From positions 1 to 37,855 of IMG/VR virus record IMGVR_UViG_3300009537_000068: DNA of 37,855 bases; one strand, written 5' to 3'. Position 1 is the first letter of the stretch. Each line of letters starts with the position of its first letter. This document shows positions 2,596 through 24,409 of this stretch, one piece after another. This DNA comes from a virus. The notes under the pieces are model-generated. The model made no database searches, was not told the origin of the DNA, and worked only from the letters and a program-made list of their open reading frames with translations. The position numbers were made by a program, and so were the translations under genes.

Positions 2596-3525
2596 ATGCG
2601 AATTTGTTGGGATAATTTGGAGGGAGTCTATTTAACCAGGAATGGAAATTTTTGCAAAGGGTCAGCAATCTATATAGAAAATGATAGATGTGAAACGTGT
2701 GGAGGATCTTTCTTGATGCTAAAAGCCAGACCAACAAGCATATGTTCCAAACCTTGTAAACGGCCCGGGATATGGTCTGAGGCTCGGAGAGAGTATATGT
2801 CCACAATAATGAAGGAGAAATATGCGGACCCAAAAAATCATCCATTTTATGGCAAGAAACATTCAGAGGAAACAAAACAAAAATTATCTGGACCAAAATC
2901 GAAAGCACACCGAGTCAAATTATCAGAAGCTGCTAAAATAAGGAAAGTTTCTGACGATACTAAAAGAAAAATGTCTAAGATGTTTGGTGGATCTGGTAAT
3001 CCTAATTATAAGGGCGGAGTATATGAAAAAAATATAGCTCTGTATGATACCTATGTTGCACAAATTTCATTTGCTGAAAGGATTAGGCGTAATAAAGATA
3101 ATGTGGATATTTTAGAAATTAAGTGTGTGTATTGTGGAAAATGGCACATTCCGAAATTAATGGATGTCAAAAATAGAGTAGGGGCACTAAATGGTTATAT
3201 GAATGGAGAACAAAGGCTGTATTGTTCTGATGGTTGTAAAAGTGCTTGTCCTATTTATTGGCAGAAATTATGGCCAAAAGGATTCAAACCAGCAACTTCT
3301 AGGGAAGTTCAGCCCGAACTCAGGAAAATGGTGTTGGAAAGAGATGATTGGACTTGTCAAAGGTGTGGAGAATCAGAGGCTGAACTCCATTGTCACCACA
3401 TCACCGGTGTTGTTCAAAATCCAATAGAATCAGCTGATGTAGATAATTGTATAACTTTTTGCAAAGATTGTCATAAATGGATACACCAACAGGATGGATG
3501 TAAATATCATGAATTGAGGTGTTAA
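2596..3525 (+). CDS. Free-standing HNH homing endonuclease with NUMOD3-like motifs
   Basis: 309 residues, start behind ACGGAGG. The N-terminus has Cys pairs (CETCGG, then CSKPC) suggesting a zinc-binding site. Residues about 75-110 carry NUMOD3-type DNA-binding motifs (HPFYGKKHSEETKQKLS, DDTKRKMSKMFGG). A second Cys cluster (CVYCGKWHIP, LYCSDGC) precedes the C-terminal McrA-type HNH nuclease: CQRCG, HCHHITGV, a central Asn in VDNCITFC and CKDCHKWIH. Such enzymes cut intron-less or HEG-less alleles to spread their own gene. It sits between a promoter-like element and the ClpP gene. A paralogue lies at 5052-5867, nearly identical over the last 80 residues but without the NUMOD3 part. Confidence 0.85.
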   Translation: MRICWDNLEGVYLTRNGNFCKGSAIYIENDRCETCGGSFLMLKARPTSICSKPCKRPGIWSEARREYMSTIMKEKYADPKNHPFYGKKHSEETKQKLSGPKSKAHRVKLSEAAKIRKVSDDTKRKMSKMFGGSGNPNYKGGVYEKNIALYDTYVAQISFAERIRRNKDNVDILEIKCVYCGKWHIPKLMDVKNRVGALNGYMNGEQRLYCSDGCKSACPIYWQKLWPKGFKPATSREVQPELRKMVLERDDWTCQRCGESEAELHCHHITGVVQNPIESADVDNCITFCKDCHKWIHQQDGCKYHELRC

Positions 3526-5051: not shown

Positions 5052-5867
5052 TTGAAAATTTGTTGGGATAATCTAGAGAACTTGACGTATAGTAATAAGA
5101 TTGGTAAGTGGAGAAAAAACTACCCTAGTGGCCACAGAAGTTATTATGTGTATAATGATAGTTGTGATGTATGTGGAGATCCTTATTTACAATTACAAAA
5201 TAGAGAAAAAACTAGAAAGTATGGCTGGTGCAGTAAGAAATGTGGTTTCGGATCAACTTTTTATAAAGAGAATATGCGCAAAAATTGTAAGCCTGCACTG
5301 CCAGGTTGTGAGCACATTAATTGGAAGGGCGGGGTTATAGAAAAAAAGTTAGTTTTGTATGATACCTATGCTGTACAATTATACCCTATGGATGAAGTTA
5401 GGCGAGCTCGTGAAAATGAAAGATTGTTAGAAGTGAAATGCACTTATTGTGGAAAATGGTATTTACCAACAAGGGCGTCCGTGCTGTGTAGAGTTCAGGT
5501 TATTAATGGTACTAATGGTAATGATGGCCGTAATAGGGATTTAAGACTGTATTGCTCTACTGGGTGCAAAAAGACATGTTCAATATTTAGACAAAGAAAA
5601 TATCCAAAAGGTTTTAAACCAGCTACGTCTCGTGAGGTTCAACCAGAACTAAGGCAAATGGTTTTTGAACGGGATGGTTGGACTTGTCAAAGGTGTGGAG
5701 AATCCTATGCTGAACTCCATTGCCATCATATTATTGGTGTTGTTCAAAACCCCATTGAATCAGCTGACGTGGATAATTGTATAACTTTTTGTAAAGTTTG
5801 TCATAAGGAAATTCATGAACAAGATGGTTGTAAATATCATGAATTAAGATGTAAAGGAGGATTATAA
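5052..5867 (+). CDS. Free-standing HNH homing endonuclease (paralogue of the one at 2596)
   Basis: 271 residues from a TTG start behind AAGGATT. It opens KICWDNLEN, like the copy at 2596, and has the same plan: N-terminal Cys pairs (CDVCGD, CSKKCG), middle Cys cluster (CTYCGKWYLP, LYCSTGC) and a C-terminal HNH nuclease (CQRCGESYAE, HCHHIIGV, VDNCITFC, CKVCHKEIHE). It lacks the NUMOD3 insert of its partner. The C-terminal 80 residues and the DNA coding for them are far more alike than the rest, suggesting recent gene conversion or strong selection on the nuclease. It separates the coiled-coil gene from the actin-like gene, as homing nuclease genes often interrupt phage operons. Confidence 0.85.
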   Translation: MKICWDNLENLTYSNKIGKWRKNYPSGHRSYYVYNDSCDVCGDPYLQLQNREKTRKYGWCSKKCGFGSTFYKENMRKNCKPALPGCEHINWKGGVIEKKLVLYDTYAVQLYPMDEVRRARENERLLEVKCTYCGKWYLPTRASVLCRVQVINGTNGNDGRNRDLRLYCSTGCKKTCSIFRQRKYPKGFKPATSREVQPELRQMVFERDGWTCQRCGESYAELHCHHIIGVVQNPIESADVDNCITFCKVCHKEIHEQDGCKYHELRCKGGL

Positions 5868-5868
5868 A

Positions 5869-6861
5869 ATGAGTAAGGGTAATGGGCTAGATTTGGGCAC
5901 AAATATGATTGTGCATGCTACAATGGGAGATGATGGAAACCCAGTGTACAAAAAACAGCGAGATGCTTTTTTTAAAATTAAGCCTCGATCAGAGGTAAAC
6001 AAAAAGAGTATTAGAATGGCTCTGGAGAGTAGAAAAGCAAATTTTATTGTAGACGGCGATGATTTTTTTATAGTAGGAGAGGATGCATTGAGAATGGCGA
6101 ATGAGAGAAATATGGAAGCTAGGCGACCTATGAGTAGAGGAGTTTTATCGCCGCGAGAAAAAAGCTCTTTACCAATGATAAAATTGATTATTAAAAGTAT
6201 TATTGGTAAAGGCAATGGAAGTGATAAGCTGGTATTTTCTATTCCTGCTGAACCAGTAGATGGAGATTTTGATATATTTTATCATGAGGCTATGATAAAG
6301 ACTTATTTGAGGGAGATGGGGTTTGACTCTACTTCTTTAAATGAGGCGTTTGCGGTTGCCTTTTCTGAACTTTTAGATGATAACTTGACGGGACTTTGTG
6401 TAAGTCTAGGTGCCGGGATGGCAAATACGGCTGTTGTATATGAGGGAGACCCTATTTTGCAGTTTTCGGTCACTAAGGGTGGAGACTGGATAGATCAATC
6501 TGTAGGCAAAGCTTTGGATTTGAGTGCCTCTATGATACAGATTGAGAAGGAAGAATCAAATGTAGATTTGCTTAAACCCGAAGGAAAGATACAAGAAGCT
6601 ATAGCTGTTTATTACGGAGTTCTGATAGGATATGTGTTGGATAATATTATCTTTGAACTGAAGAGGTCAAAGCTCCCATTATTTAGAGACCCGGTACCGA
6701 TAGTAGTATCAGGTGGGTTGACACTGGCAACTAATTTCACGGAGAGATTTAGGATGGAGGCAGAAGCAAAGAAATTCCCATTTGAAATTAAAGAAATACG
6801 TAGAGCCAAAGACCCGATGAATTGTGTCAGTCATGGGTGTTTAATGGCGTCCATACTATAA
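5869..6861 (+). CDS. Actin/Hsp70-fold ATPase (MreB/ParM-like)
   Basis: 330 residues, start behind AAAGGAGG. The three nucleotide-binding signatures of the actin/Hsp70 superfamily are in order: phosphate-1 GLDLGTN (6-12), phosphate-2 GLCVSLGAGMANTAVVYEG (175-193), and an adenosine motif VVSGGLT (279-285). The length is typical for ParM, MreB or Alp proteins. Such proteins polymerise into filaments that move DNA or place structures in the cell, but non-filament ATPases share the fold. It lies between an HNH gene and a coiled-coil gene, which could be its partner. No obvious ParR or centromere-like repeat is nearby. The fold is strongly supported; filament formation is inference. Confidence 0.8.
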   Translation: MSKGNGLDLGTNMIVHATMGDDGNPVYKKQRDAFFKIKPRSEVNKKSIRMALESRKANFIVDGDDFFIVGEDALRMANERNMEARRPMSRGVLSPREKSSLPMIKLIIKSIIGKGNGSDKLVFSIPAEPVDGDFDIFYHEAMIKTYLREMGFDSTSLNEAFAVAFSELLDDNLTGLCVSLGAGMANTAVVYEGDPILQFSVTKGGDWIDQSVGKALDLSASMIQIEKEESNVDLLKPEGKIQEAIAVYYGVLIGYVLDNIIFELKRSKLPLFRDPVPIVVSGGLTLATNFTERFRMEAEAKKFPFEIKEIRRAKDPMNCVSHGCLMASIL

Positions 6862-6873
6862 AGGAGAATTAAT

Positions 6874-7866
6874 ATGTCAAGAAAGACAAAGACTAAAGAG
6901 CTGGTGCCTATAAATGAAATTAGAGATATAACTACTCAGGCAGATAAATTGATTGATAAGTCCAATGTGTTTATGCAGATTTCTACACGAGGCGCTGATC
7001 CAGGAAGTACATCCATAGTTGATTTTAAAGTTTTTAATGACGCTAAACTTGCTAAACTAGCTGAGAATATGCCAGAGATAAACAGAGCTACGAATGTTTT
7101 TGGCAGGCAGAACTCACAGGCTACTGGAAAGCTAATGAGTTTGAATATGATTTCACAGTCCCCATATAGAAGACTAAAACAATGTCTTGCTAAGATAGAA
7201 CGTAAACGAGGAGCACTTAAAGAGAATATTTTTCGCCTCCGAAAAGAAAAACTTGAGATGGATAGGCTGTTGTACAAAAGGCGGTGCCTTGAAGATAAAT
7301 TATCTGTTACTGAAGTAGATGTAGATTTACAGGAAATTAAATTTGATATACAATCTATAGAAATAGAAGTTCAGGAAAAAGCTGCGAATATAGCAGATAC
7401 AAATCTTTATATAGAAGGAAGTTTGAAGGAAGTAGGAATGTATCAAGATGCGTATAGTCAAATAAAAGAATCTTACAATATTCCTGATCATTGGGACGAG
7501 GAAGATTTTGAAAAGTGTGAGGTAGAGGAGCACGTAAAGACCGCGTTTCTTCATACAATTCGAGACGTGGAAATGACTGGCAGGCTAAACTGTGGTACCC
7601 ATGAGTACTTGGAACAGTACGGAGTCAATCCTCACACTGCACTTAAACTGGTTCAAATTTATCTAAGCAATGTAGAACGATTAACCACTGAGGGTAAATA
7701 TCCTAATGTCACCATGCTGTATGATTTTTTGGATGAGATGCACAACACATTCAAGGAGGAATATAAGCACGCAATGCGTAGAATTGGTCTAAAGAAACTA
7801 ATATCAGAAGATTATTTATATTTGGAAGACAAAACTAGTGATACTGTGGACGAACTGAATGGCTAA
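6874..7866 (+). CDS. Coiled-coil protein of unknown function, downstream of the actin-like gene
   Basis: 330 residues starting behind AAGGAGAA, 12 bases after the actin-like gene, so both are probably on one transcript. The N-terminal third has mixed composition with a QADKLIDKSNVF helix. Residues about 105-185 form a charged coiled coil (RRLKQCLAKIERKRGALKE, EKLEMDRLLYKRRCLEDKL). The C-terminal third is helical and acidic, ending DTVDELNG. No catalytic motif or membrane segment is seen. Its stop codon overlaps the start of the HNH gene at 7859 by eight bases. A partner, adaptor or structural role with the ATPase is possible but unproven. Confidence 0.65.
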   Translation: MSRKTKTKELVPINEIRDITTQADKLIDKSNVFMQISTRGADPGSTSIVDFKVFNDAKLAKLAENMPEINRATNVFGRQNSQATGKLMSLNMISQSPYRRLKQCLAKIERKRGALKENIFRLRKEKLEMDRLLYKRRCLEDKLSVTEVDVDLQEIKFDIQSIEIEVQEKAANIADTNLYIEGSLKEVGMYQDAYSQIKESYNIPDHWDEEDFEKCEVEEHVKTAFLHTIRDVEMTGRLNCGTHEYLEQYGVNPHTALKLVQIYLSNVERLTTEGKYPNVTMLYDFLDEMHNTFKEEYKHAMRRIGLKKLISEDYLYLEDKTSDTVDELNG

Positions 7867-8602
7867 AAAAAGTAATCTAGTTGGAATGAGATTTGGAAGA
7901 CTTATAGTATTGAGATATACTCATAATAATAAGTACGGTAAAACAATGTGGGAGTGTAGATGTGACTGTGGTAGTAATAAAATTATCTGTGGTAGTAATT
8001 TAAAAAACGGCCATACAAAATCCTGCGGTTGTTTTCAAAAAGAAAAAGCTTCTGAAGCAAATAGTAACAAATTTGTTTCGGACAAGACACGAAAAAAATT
8101 ATCAGATTCATGGAAAAATAGACCAGCAGTATCAAAAGAAACTAGAAGAAAAATGTCTGATGCAAATAGAGGCAAAAATAATCCTATGTTTGGTAAAAAA
8201 CACAGTGAAGAGTCTAAAGAAAAGAATTCTAAATCTCAAAAAGGATCCATCCCATGGAATAAAGGTAAGATCGGGATTTACTCAGAGAAGACACTAAAAA
8301 GGATGTCTATTCTAGCTAAACAGAGGATCAAACACGGCCTAACTGGTACCAAGTTTTATAATAATGCAAAAGCAGCAAAGCGTAGAGCGTGGAAATTAAA
8401 ACAAACACCTTTGGACGCAAATCAAGAAGAAATTAGTAGAATATATAAAATTTGTAGTGATATCAATGCTCGAGCTGGAAAAATATTGTTTCATGTAGAC
8501 CATATAGTGCCTTTATCGAAAGGTGGTTTGCACCACCAAGATAATTTACAAATACTGCGGGCAGAAGATAATTTAAAAAAGGGATCAAAAATATTATATT
8601 AA
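7859..8602 (+). CDS. Free-standing HNH endonuclease with NUMOD3-like motifs
   Basis: 247 residues. The start overlaps the end of the preceding gene and has little ribosome binding site of its own, so it is probably translated by coupling. The N-terminus (GMRFGRLIVLRY, WECRCDCGSNKIICGSNLKNG, SCGC) is the zinc-like domain common in phage HNH proteins. NUMOD3-type motifs follow (NPMFGKKHSEESKEKNSKS, GSIPWNKGK). The nuclease is at the C-terminus: HVDHIVPLSKGG with NLQILRAEDNLKKGSK. This is a different HNH subtype from the two genes at 2596 and 5052, so it came from a separate invasion. It is the closest nuclease gene, about 1 kb upstream, to the ORF-less intron at 9658. Confidence 0.85.
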   Translation: MAKKSNLVGMRFGRLIVLRYTHNNKYGKTMWECRCDCGSNKIICGSNLKNGHTKSCGCFQKEKASEANSNKFVSDKTRKKLSDSWKNRPAVSKETRRKMSDANRGKNNPMFGKKHSEESKEKNSKSQKGSIPWNKGKIGIYSEKTLKRMSILAKQRIKHGLTGTKFYNNAKAAKRRAWKLKQTPLDANQEEISRIYKICSDINARAGKILFHVDHIVPLSKGGLHHQDNLQILRAEDNLKKGSKILY

Positions 8603-8632: not shown

Positions 8633-8670
8633 ATTTATCTAGCAAATTACAAATAATATTCTATAATAAT
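8633..8670 (+). promoter_or_regulatory. Promoter-like element, copy 2 (CTAGCA-17-TATAAT)
   Basis: Reads TTTATCTAGCAAA, an A/T spacer, then AATATTCTATAATA, matching the element at 2511-2548 in both blocks and in spacing. The -10 is TATAAT at 8660-8665, with CTAGCA 17 bases upstream. It lies in an 84-base gap after the HNH gene, followed by CGAGGAG and the start at 8687. It is the likely promoter for the accessory block that begins with the 77-residue protein and the glycosyltransferase. Confidence 0.6.
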
Positions 8671-8686
8671 AACGAGGAGATAAACT

Positions 8687-8920
8687 ATGGTAACAGATTA
8701 TATCGCATTTGAACTTTCACCAGGACAAAAACCACCTGTTGGTGCAACTGGCATTACGATTTCTGGAACCGGCGAAATTATATGGGTGGGCGAGGAAGGC
8801 ACATTTGATATGAATGCCACATTTGGAACTATTTTACAAACAGATCCTACGCCTCAGTCTACTATCACAAACAGGTCAATGACACAACAAGAAATAGACG
8901 ATTATCTAGCCACTTTATAA
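8687..8920 (+). CDS. Small protein of unknown function (77 aa)
   Basis: 77 residues behind GAGGAGA, first gene after the promoter-like element at 8633. It has a Pro/Gly/Thr-rich beta-like body (SPGQKPPVGATGITISGTGE, IIWVGEEGTFDMNATFGT) and ends in a short acidic helix (MTQQEIDDYLATL). No signal peptide, Cys pair or membrane span. The composition resembles small phage structural or accessory proteins. Not recognised. Confidence 0.6.
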   Translation: MVTDYIAFELSPGQKPPVGATGITISGTGEIIWVGEEGTFDMNATFGTILQTDPTPQSTITNRSMTQQEIDDYLATL

Positions 8921-8930
8921 GGATTATATT

Positions 8931-9581
8931 ATGAGTATTAATTTATTTATAGGCACGCCTTGCTATGGCGGTCAATGCCACACTGACTACCTACACTCAT
9001 TGATTTCATACTATGAGTCAAAAATACCCTTCACTGTTATGACTCTAGGAAATGAAAGTTTAATTTCGAGGGGAAGAAATACCTTGGCCTCTTATTTTTA
9101 TAGAATGGTAGGCCCAACATATTTGTTATTTTTGGATGCGGACATCTATCTTCATGCAAATGAGCTTATAAAACTTCTATCTCATGATAAAGATGTTATA
9201 GGAGCTCCGGTGGCTTTGAAGGGCCACGATGCGGAAGGCAACCCCGTTTATAACACAGGTAAAATACTTGAAGAAGAGGGTGATTTATTAAAGGTAGACA
9301 AATTAGGCACAGCTGTCTTGTTATTATCTAGAAAGGCTGTTAATGAACTAGTTTATCACGCTGAGGATAATGGTGATGTGTATTATAGTAATCCTCATAC
9401 TAGGGGAGATGCCGATCCTAGTGTGAAAATGTTTGATATATTTAAAACAGGGGTATTTAATAAAGAATATTATTCTGAGGATTATTATGCTTGTAGAACT
9501 CTTAGAAAATTAGGTTTTGATATATATGTTAATCCAAATGTACGCACCAGGCACAATGGGAATTATGTGTTTGGTAATTAA
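8931..9581 (+). CDS. GT-A-type glycosyltransferase
   Basis: 216 residues behind AAGGATT. It begins with a Rossmann-like strand (INLFIGTPCYGGQCHTDY). A nucleotide-sugar and metal-binding DxD follows in LLFLDADIYLH (Asp69 and Asp71). The preceding SLISRGRNTLASYF motif and later YYSEDYYACRTLRKLGFDIYV fit the GT-A fold of GT2-like and Anp1-like enzymes found in large environmental phages. It probably transfers a sugar to phage DNA, to a virion protein or to a host surface molecule. The acceptor cannot be read from the sequence. No membrane span is seen, so a soluble cytoplasmic enzyme is expected. Confidence 0.8.
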   Translation: MSINLFIGTPCYGGQCHTDYLHSLISYYESKIPFTVMTLGNESLISRGRNTLASYFYRMVGPTYLLFLDADIYLHANELIKLLSHDKDVIGAPVALKGHDAEGNPVYNTGKILEEEGDLLKVDKLGTAVLLLSRKAVNELVYHAEDNGDVYYSNPHTRGDADPSVKMFDIFKTGVFNKEYYSEDYYACRTLRKLGFDIYVNPNVRTRHNGNYVFGN

Positions 9582-9603
9582 TTAATTAGGAGGAATTAGT
9601 TTA

Positions 9604-10079
9604 ATGGGAGACGAAAGAGTTAGTGGAGTAGTTAAATGGTTTTCTTCAGAACGAGGTACATAGTGGCCCTTCATAGGGGAAACCTTATGTCGAAATCCCT
9701 CTAATTGCTGGGACATCCTACAATAAGGCTGAGGACAATCAGCAGCGAATCCCGAAAGGGCACGTTCAACGACTAGAGCATAGGCTCGTAGATTCAAGCG
9801 AATCGAAACGGGGGAGACCTTAAATGGTTTTGATATAGTCTGATCTCATAGGAAACTATGAGCTGCTTTTAAAAGCGGTATAAGATTAGCGACCTTATAT
9901 GAACATTAATGTACGGTTTTGTACTAAAAGATGGAGACGAGTCTACTGAATATTTTGTTCATTTTTCTTACATCCAGATGGACGGCTATAAGACGCTTAG
10001 AGCTGGACAGAAAGTAGAATTTACGCTAGTAGAGACAGACAAGGGTATTCAAGCGCAGGAAATTACTCCTGTGGAATAA
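9604..10079 (+). CDS. Cold-shock (CspA-family) protein, gene split by a group I intron
   Basis: Exon 1 is 9604-9657 (18 codons) behind TTAGGAGGAA. Exon 2 is 9912-10079 (55 codons plus stop). Joined, they give a 73-residue protein of normal CspA length. It has the VKWF motif (Trp12, Phe13), RNP1 in RGYGFV with the intron between Gly18 and Tyr19, RNP2 in YFVHFSYI (33-36), and the usual end GQKVEFTL, KGIQAQEITPVE. These proteins bind single-stranded RNA or DNA and melt RNA structure. Without splicing, exon 1 runs into a TAG codon within four bases of the junction region. The split between two perfectly matching halves is direct evidence for splicing. Confidence 0.88.
9658..9911 (+). ncRNA. Group I self-splicing intron (254 nt, no ORF)
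   Basis: Core elements occur in order: Q-type AATCAGCAGCG at 9737-9747; a CCC-GAAA-GGG hairpin at 9751-9760; R-type GTTCAACGACTAGAGC at 9764-9779; a GATTC-AAGC-GAATC hairpin (probable P8) near 9791-9804; S-type GATATAGTC at 9832-9840, whose TAGTC pairs with GACTA of R to form P7; and a perfect P9 hairpin CTCATAG-GAAA-CTATGAG at 9845-9862. The 5' exon ends in T and the intron ends in G, as expected. GTAC is repeated at both junctions, so the exact cut may shift by up to four bases without changing the spliced product. P1 pairing is weak by eye. Confidence 0.88.
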
Positions 10080-22177: not shown

Positions 22178-24409
22178 ATGGAAAGAAAAGAAATGCAAGA
22201 ACTGTTTAAGGCTACTGCTGCTATTAATACCCCTGAAGGGCTTATGGCTTATAGAGCCTTCGCACAAGCACTGACTACTCCAATCCTTCAAGCTGTAGAG
22301 AGAGAATCCATTATGAGACAGCTATTTGCTGTTGAAAGACTAGGACCCGGAGCCCAAGCCAGTTATCCGGTGGCAGAAGATTTTGAGATCAAAATTACGG
22401 GGGTCTCATAACTTAGCTGTATGCTGGAAACTTCTAAAGCCGTCCTTTACTGATATGGTAATAATAAGGAGGATATATGGACAATCAGCAGGCAACTTTA
22501 ATAACTAATAATAATTATTTTGCAGGTTTAGTAGATTCTGATTTTGGTGTAAATATTTATGAAAGTACTTACAAGGGTAAATTACAACTTCAGCCTAGAA
22601 TAACATTCACCAATACTAGATTTAATTTAATTGAGTTGTGCGCATCTATTTTATATAATAACAATATAAATCACTATATAGGAAATATGAAAGCGTCTAT
22701 TGGTAGAGATGCTAAGCGTATTACAATACAAAGACTTTCTAAATGTATAGAGTTTGTGGATCTTTGGTTAAGTTTTTGTATTGTTCGGCGACCTCAATTG
22801 GAATTAATTAAAAATTTTTGTATTGATAGAATGAATTATGTGAATGATTATGGTTGGAAATATAAAAATACTCCTTACAACGATGTACAGAGGTATATCT
22901 ATAAAAAATTAAAATTATTGAATTTAAATTATAACTATGATAATGGGCATAGAAATTATACATTTTCTTGGTTAGGTGGTATGATTGATGGTGATGGGAG
23001 TGTATATTTTAGTGTAACCAAAAGAAGATCTAAATATAAGCATAAAGAATATATATACACCAAAATACAGCCATGGATTAAAGTTACTACTGGATCTGAC
23101 ACGGCTAAAAATAATATTATAGAGCTATATAATAAATATTGTATAAAATATTATATCGACACTGTAAAATCTAAGGCATCGAAAAAATTAGATAAGAATG
23201 GTTATAAATTCCATTATAGTATTTTAGTAAAAGAATTCAACGATCTATTAATATTGATACGTGAGTTGAACGGTAAAATTTTTGCTAAACAAGAACAACT
23301 CAACTTGATGAAAGAATATATTGATGCTAAAAAAATTAATAGGCATAACACTAAAGATGTGTTTGATATAGTACAAAAAGTTAGTATATTAAATAATAGT
23401 TATTAAAGGAGCCCCAGAGACTACATGCTAAGCACATTGTTTATATGTGAAGATATAGTCCGAACTGTATGGAGACATACAGAGTTATTCAGAAATGAAT
23501 AGCCGCCTAACAGGTAAAGCTGAGGTTATTATAAGTAACAATGCTTGTCCCGTTTGGGTATTGCCTGGTCTTGGTTATGTTGCACAGAACTTTATAGAAG
23601 GTATAGGAGAGGAAGTATATGTTCCTACATTTACCATTGATGCTTCTGGCGACTGGAAACTCACCTACGCTAGGGATTCGAGAATTGACATTGCGGCAAG
23701 GGCTGCTGAGAAGGCAGCTAAAGCTATTTCAGATTATGAAGAGGAAAGTGGTTGGAGAGTAATTTTACCTGCCGCCACCTCACTATTTTTTGGTAAGGGT
23801 CTGCTTGGTTCACGCCCAGCTCCTATTTATGAAATTAATCCGGCATCTACTGGTGCTGGGTATCTTTCAAAGGAACTTATCAATAAAATGATAGTTGGTT
23901 TTAGGAGAATCGGGCGTACATTAACCGATCTTTATGTTTCACCTGAAGATGCAGCCGACATCCGTGAGTGGACTGATACGGACATAGATCCTGTAACAAG
24001 AAGAGAAATATTTCAGGCTGGTGGTATGGGTAGTATATGGAATGTGTCTCTTACTGAACTTCAGCATCTTGGAGCTACTGGTCTATATAACATTAATGGC
24101 AGTACTTCAGCTTTTGGCAAGTTTCTTGCTGATACTGGTACTGAGGCATTTAATGGATATACCTTAGACAATCCTAATATCACATCTGCTGATGGTACAG
24201 TTGCAACACTAGGAGAAACTCAGATTATCGGTTTTGACCTTAGTGTTAATGATTCATTGGTAATGCCTATTCGTAAAGATTATGAGGCATATGATGATCC
24301 AACCCTACTTAGAGTCCAGAAAGCTGGTTTCTTTGGTTGGGAAGAAATTGGATTTGCATGTTTAGACCCACGTATGCTTGGTATGGGCATTATTGACAGA
24401 TCCCTATAA
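22178..24409 (+). CDS. Major capsid protein, gene split by a group I intron
   Basis: Exon 1 is 22178-22389 behind GGGAGGACAG. Exon 2 is about 23503-24409. Removal of the intron gives a continuous 372-residue protein whose junction codon (AT plus C) reads DFEI-RLTGKAEV. Exon 1 has the helical start (MQELFKATAAINTPEGLMAY, RQLFAVERLGPGAQASYPV). Exon 2 has the capsid body (CPVWVLPGLGYVAQNFIEGI, EEVYVPTFTIDASGDWKLTY, LTDLYVSPEDAADIREWTD) and the end FGWEEIGFACLDPRMLGMGI. This resembles capsid proteins of HK97-fold phages as I know them. Neither exon alone is a full capsid. Scaffold and protease genes lie upstream. Confidence 0.85.
22390..23502 (+). ncRNA. Group I intron in the capsid gene, carrying a LAGLIDADG endonuclease gene
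   Basis: The 5' splice site was placed by P1: exon end TGAGAT (22384-22389) pairs perfectly with guide GTCTCA (22403-22408), giving the required U-G pair. Core elements: Q-type AATCAGCAGGC at 22483-22493; R-type CAGAGACTACATGC at 23415-23428; S-type AAGATATAGTCC at 23450-23461, with GACTA/TAGTC forming P7; and a perfect P9 hairpin CTGTATG-GAGA-CATACAG at 23465-23482. The 3' splice site must end in G and keep frame: 23502 or 23505 both fit. The endonuclease gene lies between Q and R. Confidence 0.85.
22477..23406 (+). CDS. LAGLIDADG homing endonuclease (intron-encoded)
   Basis: 309 residues behind AAGGAGG at 22466-22472, only four bases before the start. It has two LAGLIDADG helices, the single-chain two-domain form: YFAGLVDSDFG (14-24) and WLGGMIDGDGS (165-175), each with the catalytic Asp (Asp20/Asp22 and Asp171/Asp173 region). 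The regions after each contain basic, aromatic beta-strand segments for DNA contact. The enzyme would cut intron-less capsid genes to spread the intron. Its start codon overlaps the intron core element Q, so the coding sequence and the ribozyme share bases. The C-terminus ends just before R. Confidence 0.88.
   Translation: MDNQQATLITNNNYFAGLVDSDFGVNIYESTYKGKLQLQPRITFTNTRFNLIELCASILYNNNINHYIGNMKASIGRDAKRITIQRLSKCIEFVDLWLSFCIVRRPQLELIKNFCIDRMNYVNDYGWKYKNTPYNDVQRYIYKKLKLLNLNYNYDNGHRNYTFSWLGGMIDGDGSVYFSVTKRRSKYKHKEYIYTKIQPWIKVTTGSDTAKNNIIELYNKYCIKYYIDTVKSKASKKLDKNGYKFHYSILVKEFNDLLILIRELNGKIFAKQEQLNLMKEYIDAKKINRHNTKDVFDIVQKVSILNNSY

What the first reader, a model, noticed from the sequence alone, without database searches (positions are those of the whole stretch)
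9604..10079. Cold-shock protein gene interrupted at RNP1 by a small ORF-less group I intron
Exon 1 stops at Gly18 and exon 2 begins with Tyr19, splitting the conserved RGYGFV RNA-binding motif. Joining them gives an intact 73-residue protein. The 254-base insert has Q, R and S core elements, P7 pairing and a perfect GNRA-capped P9. Phage introns are known in polymerase, reductase, thymidylate synthase, terminase and lysin genes. A cold-shock gene as host gene is new to me. The CspA protein itself melts RNA structure, so a feedback on its own intron is imaginable.
Basis: partly seen in the sequence, partly recalled or inferred. Interest (0 to 1): 0.72.

Follow-up and report, generated by a model that had tools for sequence, protein, structure and literature searches.

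The report
Self-splicing intron in phage cold-shock gene
A bacterial virus carries a small self-splicing RNA insert (a group I intron) inside the most conserved part of its cold-shock protein gene; related viruses show the same gene intact or invaded at two different places, so the insert is real, and what is new is mainly the gene that was hit.

Summary
A cold-shock gene is split: exon 1 9604-9657, intron 9658-9911 (254 nt, no encoded protein), exon 2 9912-10079. The joined product is a 73-residue cold-shock domain (Pfam E 2.5e-22). The insert scores 82.3 bits, E 2.4e-21, against Rfam group I introns; whole-window scans missed it through their speed filters. Six related phage contigs carry the gene uninterrupted with exactly the predicted junction. 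One related phage carries a diverged intron at the same site (87.2 bits). Three contigs of a more distant phage carry a related intron at a second site 17 nt upstream (88.2 bits). Across the three introns 28 helix positions change by compensation, and P7.1/P7.2 place them in subgroup IA. Mobility by an endonuclease acting in trans is only a lead; autoregulation by the cold-shock protein is untested. I found no report of a cold-shock gene as group I host in the library held; the kind of element is well known. Verdict: a new host gene, invaded at two sites at least, for a known kind of intron. The same phage carries a second group I intron, with an endonuclease-like gene, in its capsid gene.

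The parts
9604..9657 (+). csp exon 1 (codons 1-18, MGDERVSGVVKWFSSERG)
   Evidence: unspliced reading stops at TAG 9661-9663, two codons into the intron
9658..9911 (+). group IA intron, 254 nt, no ORF; U before it and G at its end
   Evidence: Rfam RF00028 82.3 bits E 2.4e-21; intron-free alleles
9912..10079 (+). csp exon 2 (codons 19-73 + stop), starts YGFV of RNP1
9655..9668 (+). P1: exon GGU (9655-9657) with guide sequence GCC (9666-9668), U.G at the splice site
   Evidence: same 3 bp in all three csp introns at both sites
9672..9689 (+). P2, 7 bp, GAAA loop
   Evidence: compensatory changes
9696..9815 (+). P3 (9696-9701 / 9810-9815)
   Evidence: compensatory changes
9705..9764 (+). P4-P5-P6 domain (P4 9705-9710/9740-9745; P5 9715-9719/9732-9736; P6 9746-9747/9763-9764; P6a 9751-9753/9758-9760)
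9771..9840 (+). P7 (9771-9775 / 9836-9840), with P7.1 9776-9787 and P7.2 9791-9804 inside
   Evidence: P7.1/P7.2 indicate subgroup IA
9816..9829 (+). P8
9845..9862 (+). P9, 7 bp with GAAA tetraloop
   Evidence: helix kept in L058 with several exchanged pairs
9865..9899 (+). P9.1 (9865-9868/9873-9876) and P9.2 (9879-9884/9894-9899)
   Evidence: helices kept while the sequence differs in all three introns
9663..9665 (+). P10 5' strand, pairs with first bases of exon 2 (9912-9914)
   Evidence: 3 bp in window, 2 bp in the other two introns; weak
2596..3525 (+). free-standing HNH/NUMOD3 endonuclease gene; candidate trans-acting homing enzyme (lead only)
   Evidence: Pfam; frameshifted remnant 71%/64% identical in the other site-A intron phage

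Best explanation
The insert is a self-splicing group IA intron without its own protein. After transcription the RNA folds (P3-P9), the U.G pair of P1 marks the end of exon 1, guanosine attacks there, the exon 1 end attacks after the terminal G, and the exons are ligated in frame to make an intact 73-residue cold-shock protein. The intron is a descendant of mobile elements that persists because it removes itself from a conserved site (RNP1). Shown here by sequence: fold, boundaries, intact product, natural intron-free alleles, same-site and second-site introns in relatives. Inferred: that splicing happens in the infected cell, and that the intron spread by homing, possibly with a free-standing HNH enzyme.
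For: Rfam group I hits: window 82.3 bits E 2.4e-21, L008 site-A intron 87.2 bits, L058 site-B intron 88.2 bits. Intron-free alleles L002-L007 read exactly across the junction. 28 compensatory, 5 one-sided, 34 invariant and 2 partly mispaired positions over 15 helices in three introns. All three have U before and G at the end of the intron, with the same GGU/GCC P1. csp is under purifying selection in both exons between two intron-bearing phages: pN 0.16 vs pS 0.53 in exon 1, 0.13 vs 0.92 in exon 2, so exon 1 is still in use. In-frame stops lie 2-4 codons into every intron.
Against: No RNA data. P1 is short (G-C, G-C, U.G, then a mismatch), so the choice of 5' site rests partly on relatives. 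One P5 pair is not standard in two of the introns. Site-B boundaries rest on the U/G rule and homologues, not on an intron-free allele of the same species.
Confidence: 0.95

Rival explanations
1. The intron is a decayed, non-splicing relic and the gene makes only exon 2 from the in-frame ATG at 9909 (MYGFVLK...), a truncated protein.
For: An in-frame start codon spans the 3' splice site in the window (ATG) and in L008 (GTG).
Against: Every core helix is intact in three diverged introns with compensatory changes; exon 1 stays under purifying selection; no Shine-Dalgarno-like sequence upstream of 9909; a barrel lacking its first strand and the start of RNP1 would not be expected to fold as a cold-shock domain; at site B the ATG is out of frame.
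Confidence: 0.03
2. Frameshift, read-through or protein-level joining restores the protein instead of RNA splicing.
For: None found.
Against: 254 nt is not a multiple of 3 and has a stop two codons in; the insert scores as a group I ribozyme and encodes no intein-like ORF.
Confidence: 0.01
3. Addition to the best explanation, not an alternative to it: the intron is spread in trans. A free-standing HNH enzyme cuts the intron-free csp allele and the ORF-less intron is copied in (collaborative homing).
For: The window holds three HNH genes (2596-3525, 5052-5867, 7859-8602). The other site-A intron phage holds a frameshifted remnant 71%/64% identical to HNH 2596-3525. Intron presence does not follow the phage tree, while the two site-A intron cores are sisters (0.917). 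Free-standing enzymes and ORF-less introns sharing a target are known (PMC3984707, PMC2988022).
Against: Two cases only; contigs are fragments; weaker HNH relatives also sit in intron-free contigs; no cleavage site known; loss in intron-free lineages explains the distribution equally well.
Confidence: 0.3
4. Addition: the cold-shock protein binds or melts its own intron and so tunes its own splicing (feedback, perhaps with temperature).
For: Csp proteins bind RNA non-specifically and melt structure; the OB-fold protein IF1 promotes td intron trans-splicing in assays (PMC3017892); P1 is weak.
Against: No test; Csp binding is micromolar and non-specific (PMC11587861); insertion at conserved sites of many genes is the rule for phage introns, so csp needs no special reason; intron-free relatives do without it.
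Confidence: 0.08

Closest known systems
Phage group IA introns (T4 td and nrdB; phiKZ; Twort-like and Bastille-like phages; mostly filed as IA2)
   Same: P3-P9 core, P7.1/P7.2, P9.1/P9.2, U before and G at the end; blastn finds T4-like td and nrdB, phiKZ-type, rv5 terminase and Staphylococcus lysin-region introns at 68-79% over parts of the query; insertion in a conserved protein-coding site
   Different: Host gene is csp; no homing endonuclease ORF inside; only 254 nt
ORF-less phage introns with free-standing endonucleases (collaborative homing)
   Same: ORF-less intron, free-standing HNH genes in the same genome
   Different: No shown cleavage of the intron site; the candidate HNH gene is not next to csp in either phage
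Cold-shock proteins CspA/CspB (PF00313, phrog_729)
   Same: Full domain with RNP1 (RGYGFV) and RNP2 (YFVHFS) after joining; E 5e-17 to CspA structures 2l15/1mjc
   Different: Gene interrupted by an intron

Membership tests
Group I intron | Covariance-model match to the catalytic core | tested here: met
   82.3 bits vs gathering 50, E 2.4e-21
Group I intron | P3/P7 pseudoknot and P4-P6, P8, P9 helices | tested here: met
   formed in three introns, 28 compensatory positions
Group I intron | U.G pair at the 5' splice site, terminal G of the intron | tested here: met
   all three introns
Group I intron | Exact joining of exons to a working reading frame; intron-free alleles | tested here: met
Group I intron | Guanosine-dependent self-splicing | not testable with these tools
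   needs an in vitro transcript
Subgroup IA (IA2) | P7.1 and P7.2 between P7 and P3'; P9.1/P9.2 | tested here: met
Subgroup IA (IA2) | IA2 rather than IA1 or IA3 | tested here: inconclusive
   no subgroup models available; nearest relatives are phage introns usually filed as IA2
Self-mobile (homing) intron | Homing endonuclease encoded in the intron | tested here: not met
   no ORF of 60 aa or more lies within 9658-9911; the one overlapping ORF (71 aa, minus strand, 9582-9797) runs out through exon 1
Collaborative homing | Free-standing endonuclease cuts the intron-free site | not testable with these tools
   HNH genes present, no activity data
Cold-shock protein | CSD domain with RNP1 and RNP2 | tested here: met
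   PF00313 79 bits; alignment

The most novel reading that the evidence does not exclude
The gene of an RNA-melting protein has been invaded by group I introns at least twice, at two sites 17 nt apart within and just before RNP1, because its product modulates folding of the intron: a self-regulating, perhaps temperature-tuned splice switch.
Probability: 0.07. Interest if true: 0.75.

Novelty: new member of a known kind. Interest (0 to 1): 0.42.

Why it matters
It adds a very small gene outside DNA replication to the host genes of phage group I introns, which are otherwise mostly polymerases, reductases, thymidylate synthase, terminases and lysins. Two separate insertion sites in the same conserved stretch, plus natural intron-free alleles, give a ready comparative set. 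The 254-nt intron with a 54-nt first exon is a compact system in which to ask whether an RNA chaperone affects the splicing of its own message. It also warns that whole-contig covariance scans with speed filters miss such introns (against 5) and that gene callers will report a truncated csp.

Tried and rejected
Whole-window Rfam scans: no hit because of filters; the four-locus scan missed L008 for the same reason, while a short stretch or the genome search finds these introns. Frameshift and intein readings rejected (254 nt, stop after two codons, no ORF). HNH gene 7859-8602, 1 kb upstream of the intron, as the obvious trans enzyme: absent from the other site-A intron phage contig, so proximity is not evidence. 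Site A and site B introns as one lineage that shifted site: not supported, the site-B intron is not their sister in the core tree, though support there is low (0.32). Recent transfer of the site-A intron: intron 83% identical against about 73% for csp and neighbours, but variable helices such as P9.2 have diverged fully, so constraint explains it as well. Other interrupted csp genes: none in about 60 further csp-encoding viral contigs, none among the phage records listed, where 5'-truncated matches lie at contig ends, none in 25 bacterial/archaeal loci. A covariance model of my own was not built: the full alignment (281 columns) is beyond the practical size limit, and the pair count was done by hand segmentation instead, which leans towards the structure tested.

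Full report
Observation. The csp gene at 9604-10079 is split exactly as described. Exon 1 (9604-9657) ends after Gly18, a 254-nt insert follows (9658-9911), exon 2 (9912-10079) resumes at Tyr19. Joined, they read as a 73-residue protein that is a full cold-shock domain, PF00313 at 79 bits, E 2.5e-22, closest among solved structures to CspA and CspB. Unspliced, translation stops after 19 residues at a TAG two codons into the insert.

What the insert is. A covariance search of the short stretch gives Rfam Intron_gpI at 82.3 bits, E 2.4e-21, gathering score 50. Two scans of the whole window returned nothing, a filter effect. The exon-flanked intron folds 3.7 standard deviations below shuffled controls.

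Comparative evidence. Scans of IMG/VR for the spliced protein found six contigs with the gene uninterrupted, reading straight through the predicted junction (L002-L007), and one contig, L008, in which the match begins at residue 19. L008 has a 259-nt intron at the identical site, 87.2 bits against Rfam. A wider scan found three contigs (L057-L059, same sequence here) in which csp is interrupted by a 263-nt intron at another site, inside the Phe13 codon, 17 nt upstream, 88.2 bits. I call the two positions site A and site B. The site-B boundaries were set from the U-before/G-at-end rule and from homologues (WFSN), since no intron-free allele of that species was found.

Structure. Segmenting the three introns by hand gives P1 to P10 with P7.1, P7.2, P9.1 and P9.2. 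Of 69 comparable pair positions, 34 are invariant, 28 change on both sides and stay paired, 5 change on one side, 2 include a mismatch. P9 has a GAAA tetraloop and keeps its seven pairs through sequence change in L058. In all three the exon ends GGU and pairs with GCC, with U.G at the splice site, and the intron ends in G. P7.1/P7.2 mean subgroup IA; IA2 is likely but not tested.

Is the gene in use? Between the window and L008, both with the site-A intron, nonsynonymous change is low in both exons (pN 0.16 and 0.13) against pS 0.53 and 0.92. Exon 1 would have decayed if the gene were dead. Exon 1 has only about 11 synonymous sites, so its numbers are rough.

Setting. The contig is a virus record of 37,855 bases with terminase, portal, head protease, capsid and an actin-like gene; its terminase is only distantly related (about 30%) to Bacillus phages such as Slash. 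Gene order around csp is shared by the related contigs; the site-B phage shares much of it at lower identity. A concatenated protein tree of six phages puts the intron-bearing L008 phage with intron-free phages and not with the window (support 100), whereas the two site-A intron cores are sisters (0.917). So the distribution is patchy: loss or lateral transfer, undecided. The site-B intron does not group with the site-A pair, which suggests separate invasions of csp, with low support.

Mobility. The intron has no endonuclease gene. The window has three HNH genes. The L008 phage has a frameshifted remnant of a close relative of HNH 2596-3525, while intron-free contigs show only weaker relatives. 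That fits collaborative homing as described for other phages (PMC3984707; PMC2988022), but two cases prove nothing.

Feedback. Csp proteins melt nucleic-acid structure and bind RNA weakly and non-specifically; the related fold IF1 promotes td trans-splicing in assays (PMC3017892; PMC11587861). An effect of Csp on its own intron is possible and cheap to test, but no sequence evidence points to it: phage introns sit at conserved sites of many genes.

Novelty. The library searches found no report of a group I intron in a cold-shock gene. A 2025 survey of Bastillevirinae names polymerase, terminase, thymidylate synthase and reductase genes (PMC11878797), and a review names polymerases, reductases and terminases as phage targets (PMC3984707). 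The library lacks most subscription journals, so absence there is not proof. Known kind of element, new host gene, at least two insertion sites.

Noticed in passing
22178-24409: The major capsid gene is split by a second group I intron (22390-23547, 1158 nt) that holds an endonuclease-like ORF (22477-23406, LAGLIDADG-like by eye, best PHROG match named HNH endonuclease); joining 22178-22389 to 23548-24409 gives an intact capsid protein like the uninterrupted one in L016 (Rfam 44.5 bits, E 9e-10, just below gathering, the ORF splitting the core).
   Followed up: partly
2596-3525, 5052-5867, 7859-8602: Three free-standing HNH endonuclease genes; the first two are 45% identical to each other.
   Followed up: partly
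L014 9603-12701 and L015 14943-18059 (terminase, csp-forward orientation); L015 7643-9742 (actin-like gene): Long in-frame insertions that look like inteins in the terminase of two related phages and in the actin-like gene of one.
   Followed up: no
8637-8668: A conserved promoter-like element ATCTAGCAAA...TTCTATAATA lies directly upstream of csp in several related phages; in the window two extra genes (8687-8920, 8931-9581) lie between it and csp.
   Followed up: no
9909-9911: An in-frame ATG (GTG in L008) spans the 3' splice site, so an unspliced message could in principle start exon 2 there; no ribosome-binding sequence seen.
   Followed up: partly
5869-6861: Actin-like protein matching Pfam Volactin at E 5e-68, upstream of csp in all related phages examined.
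   Followed up: no
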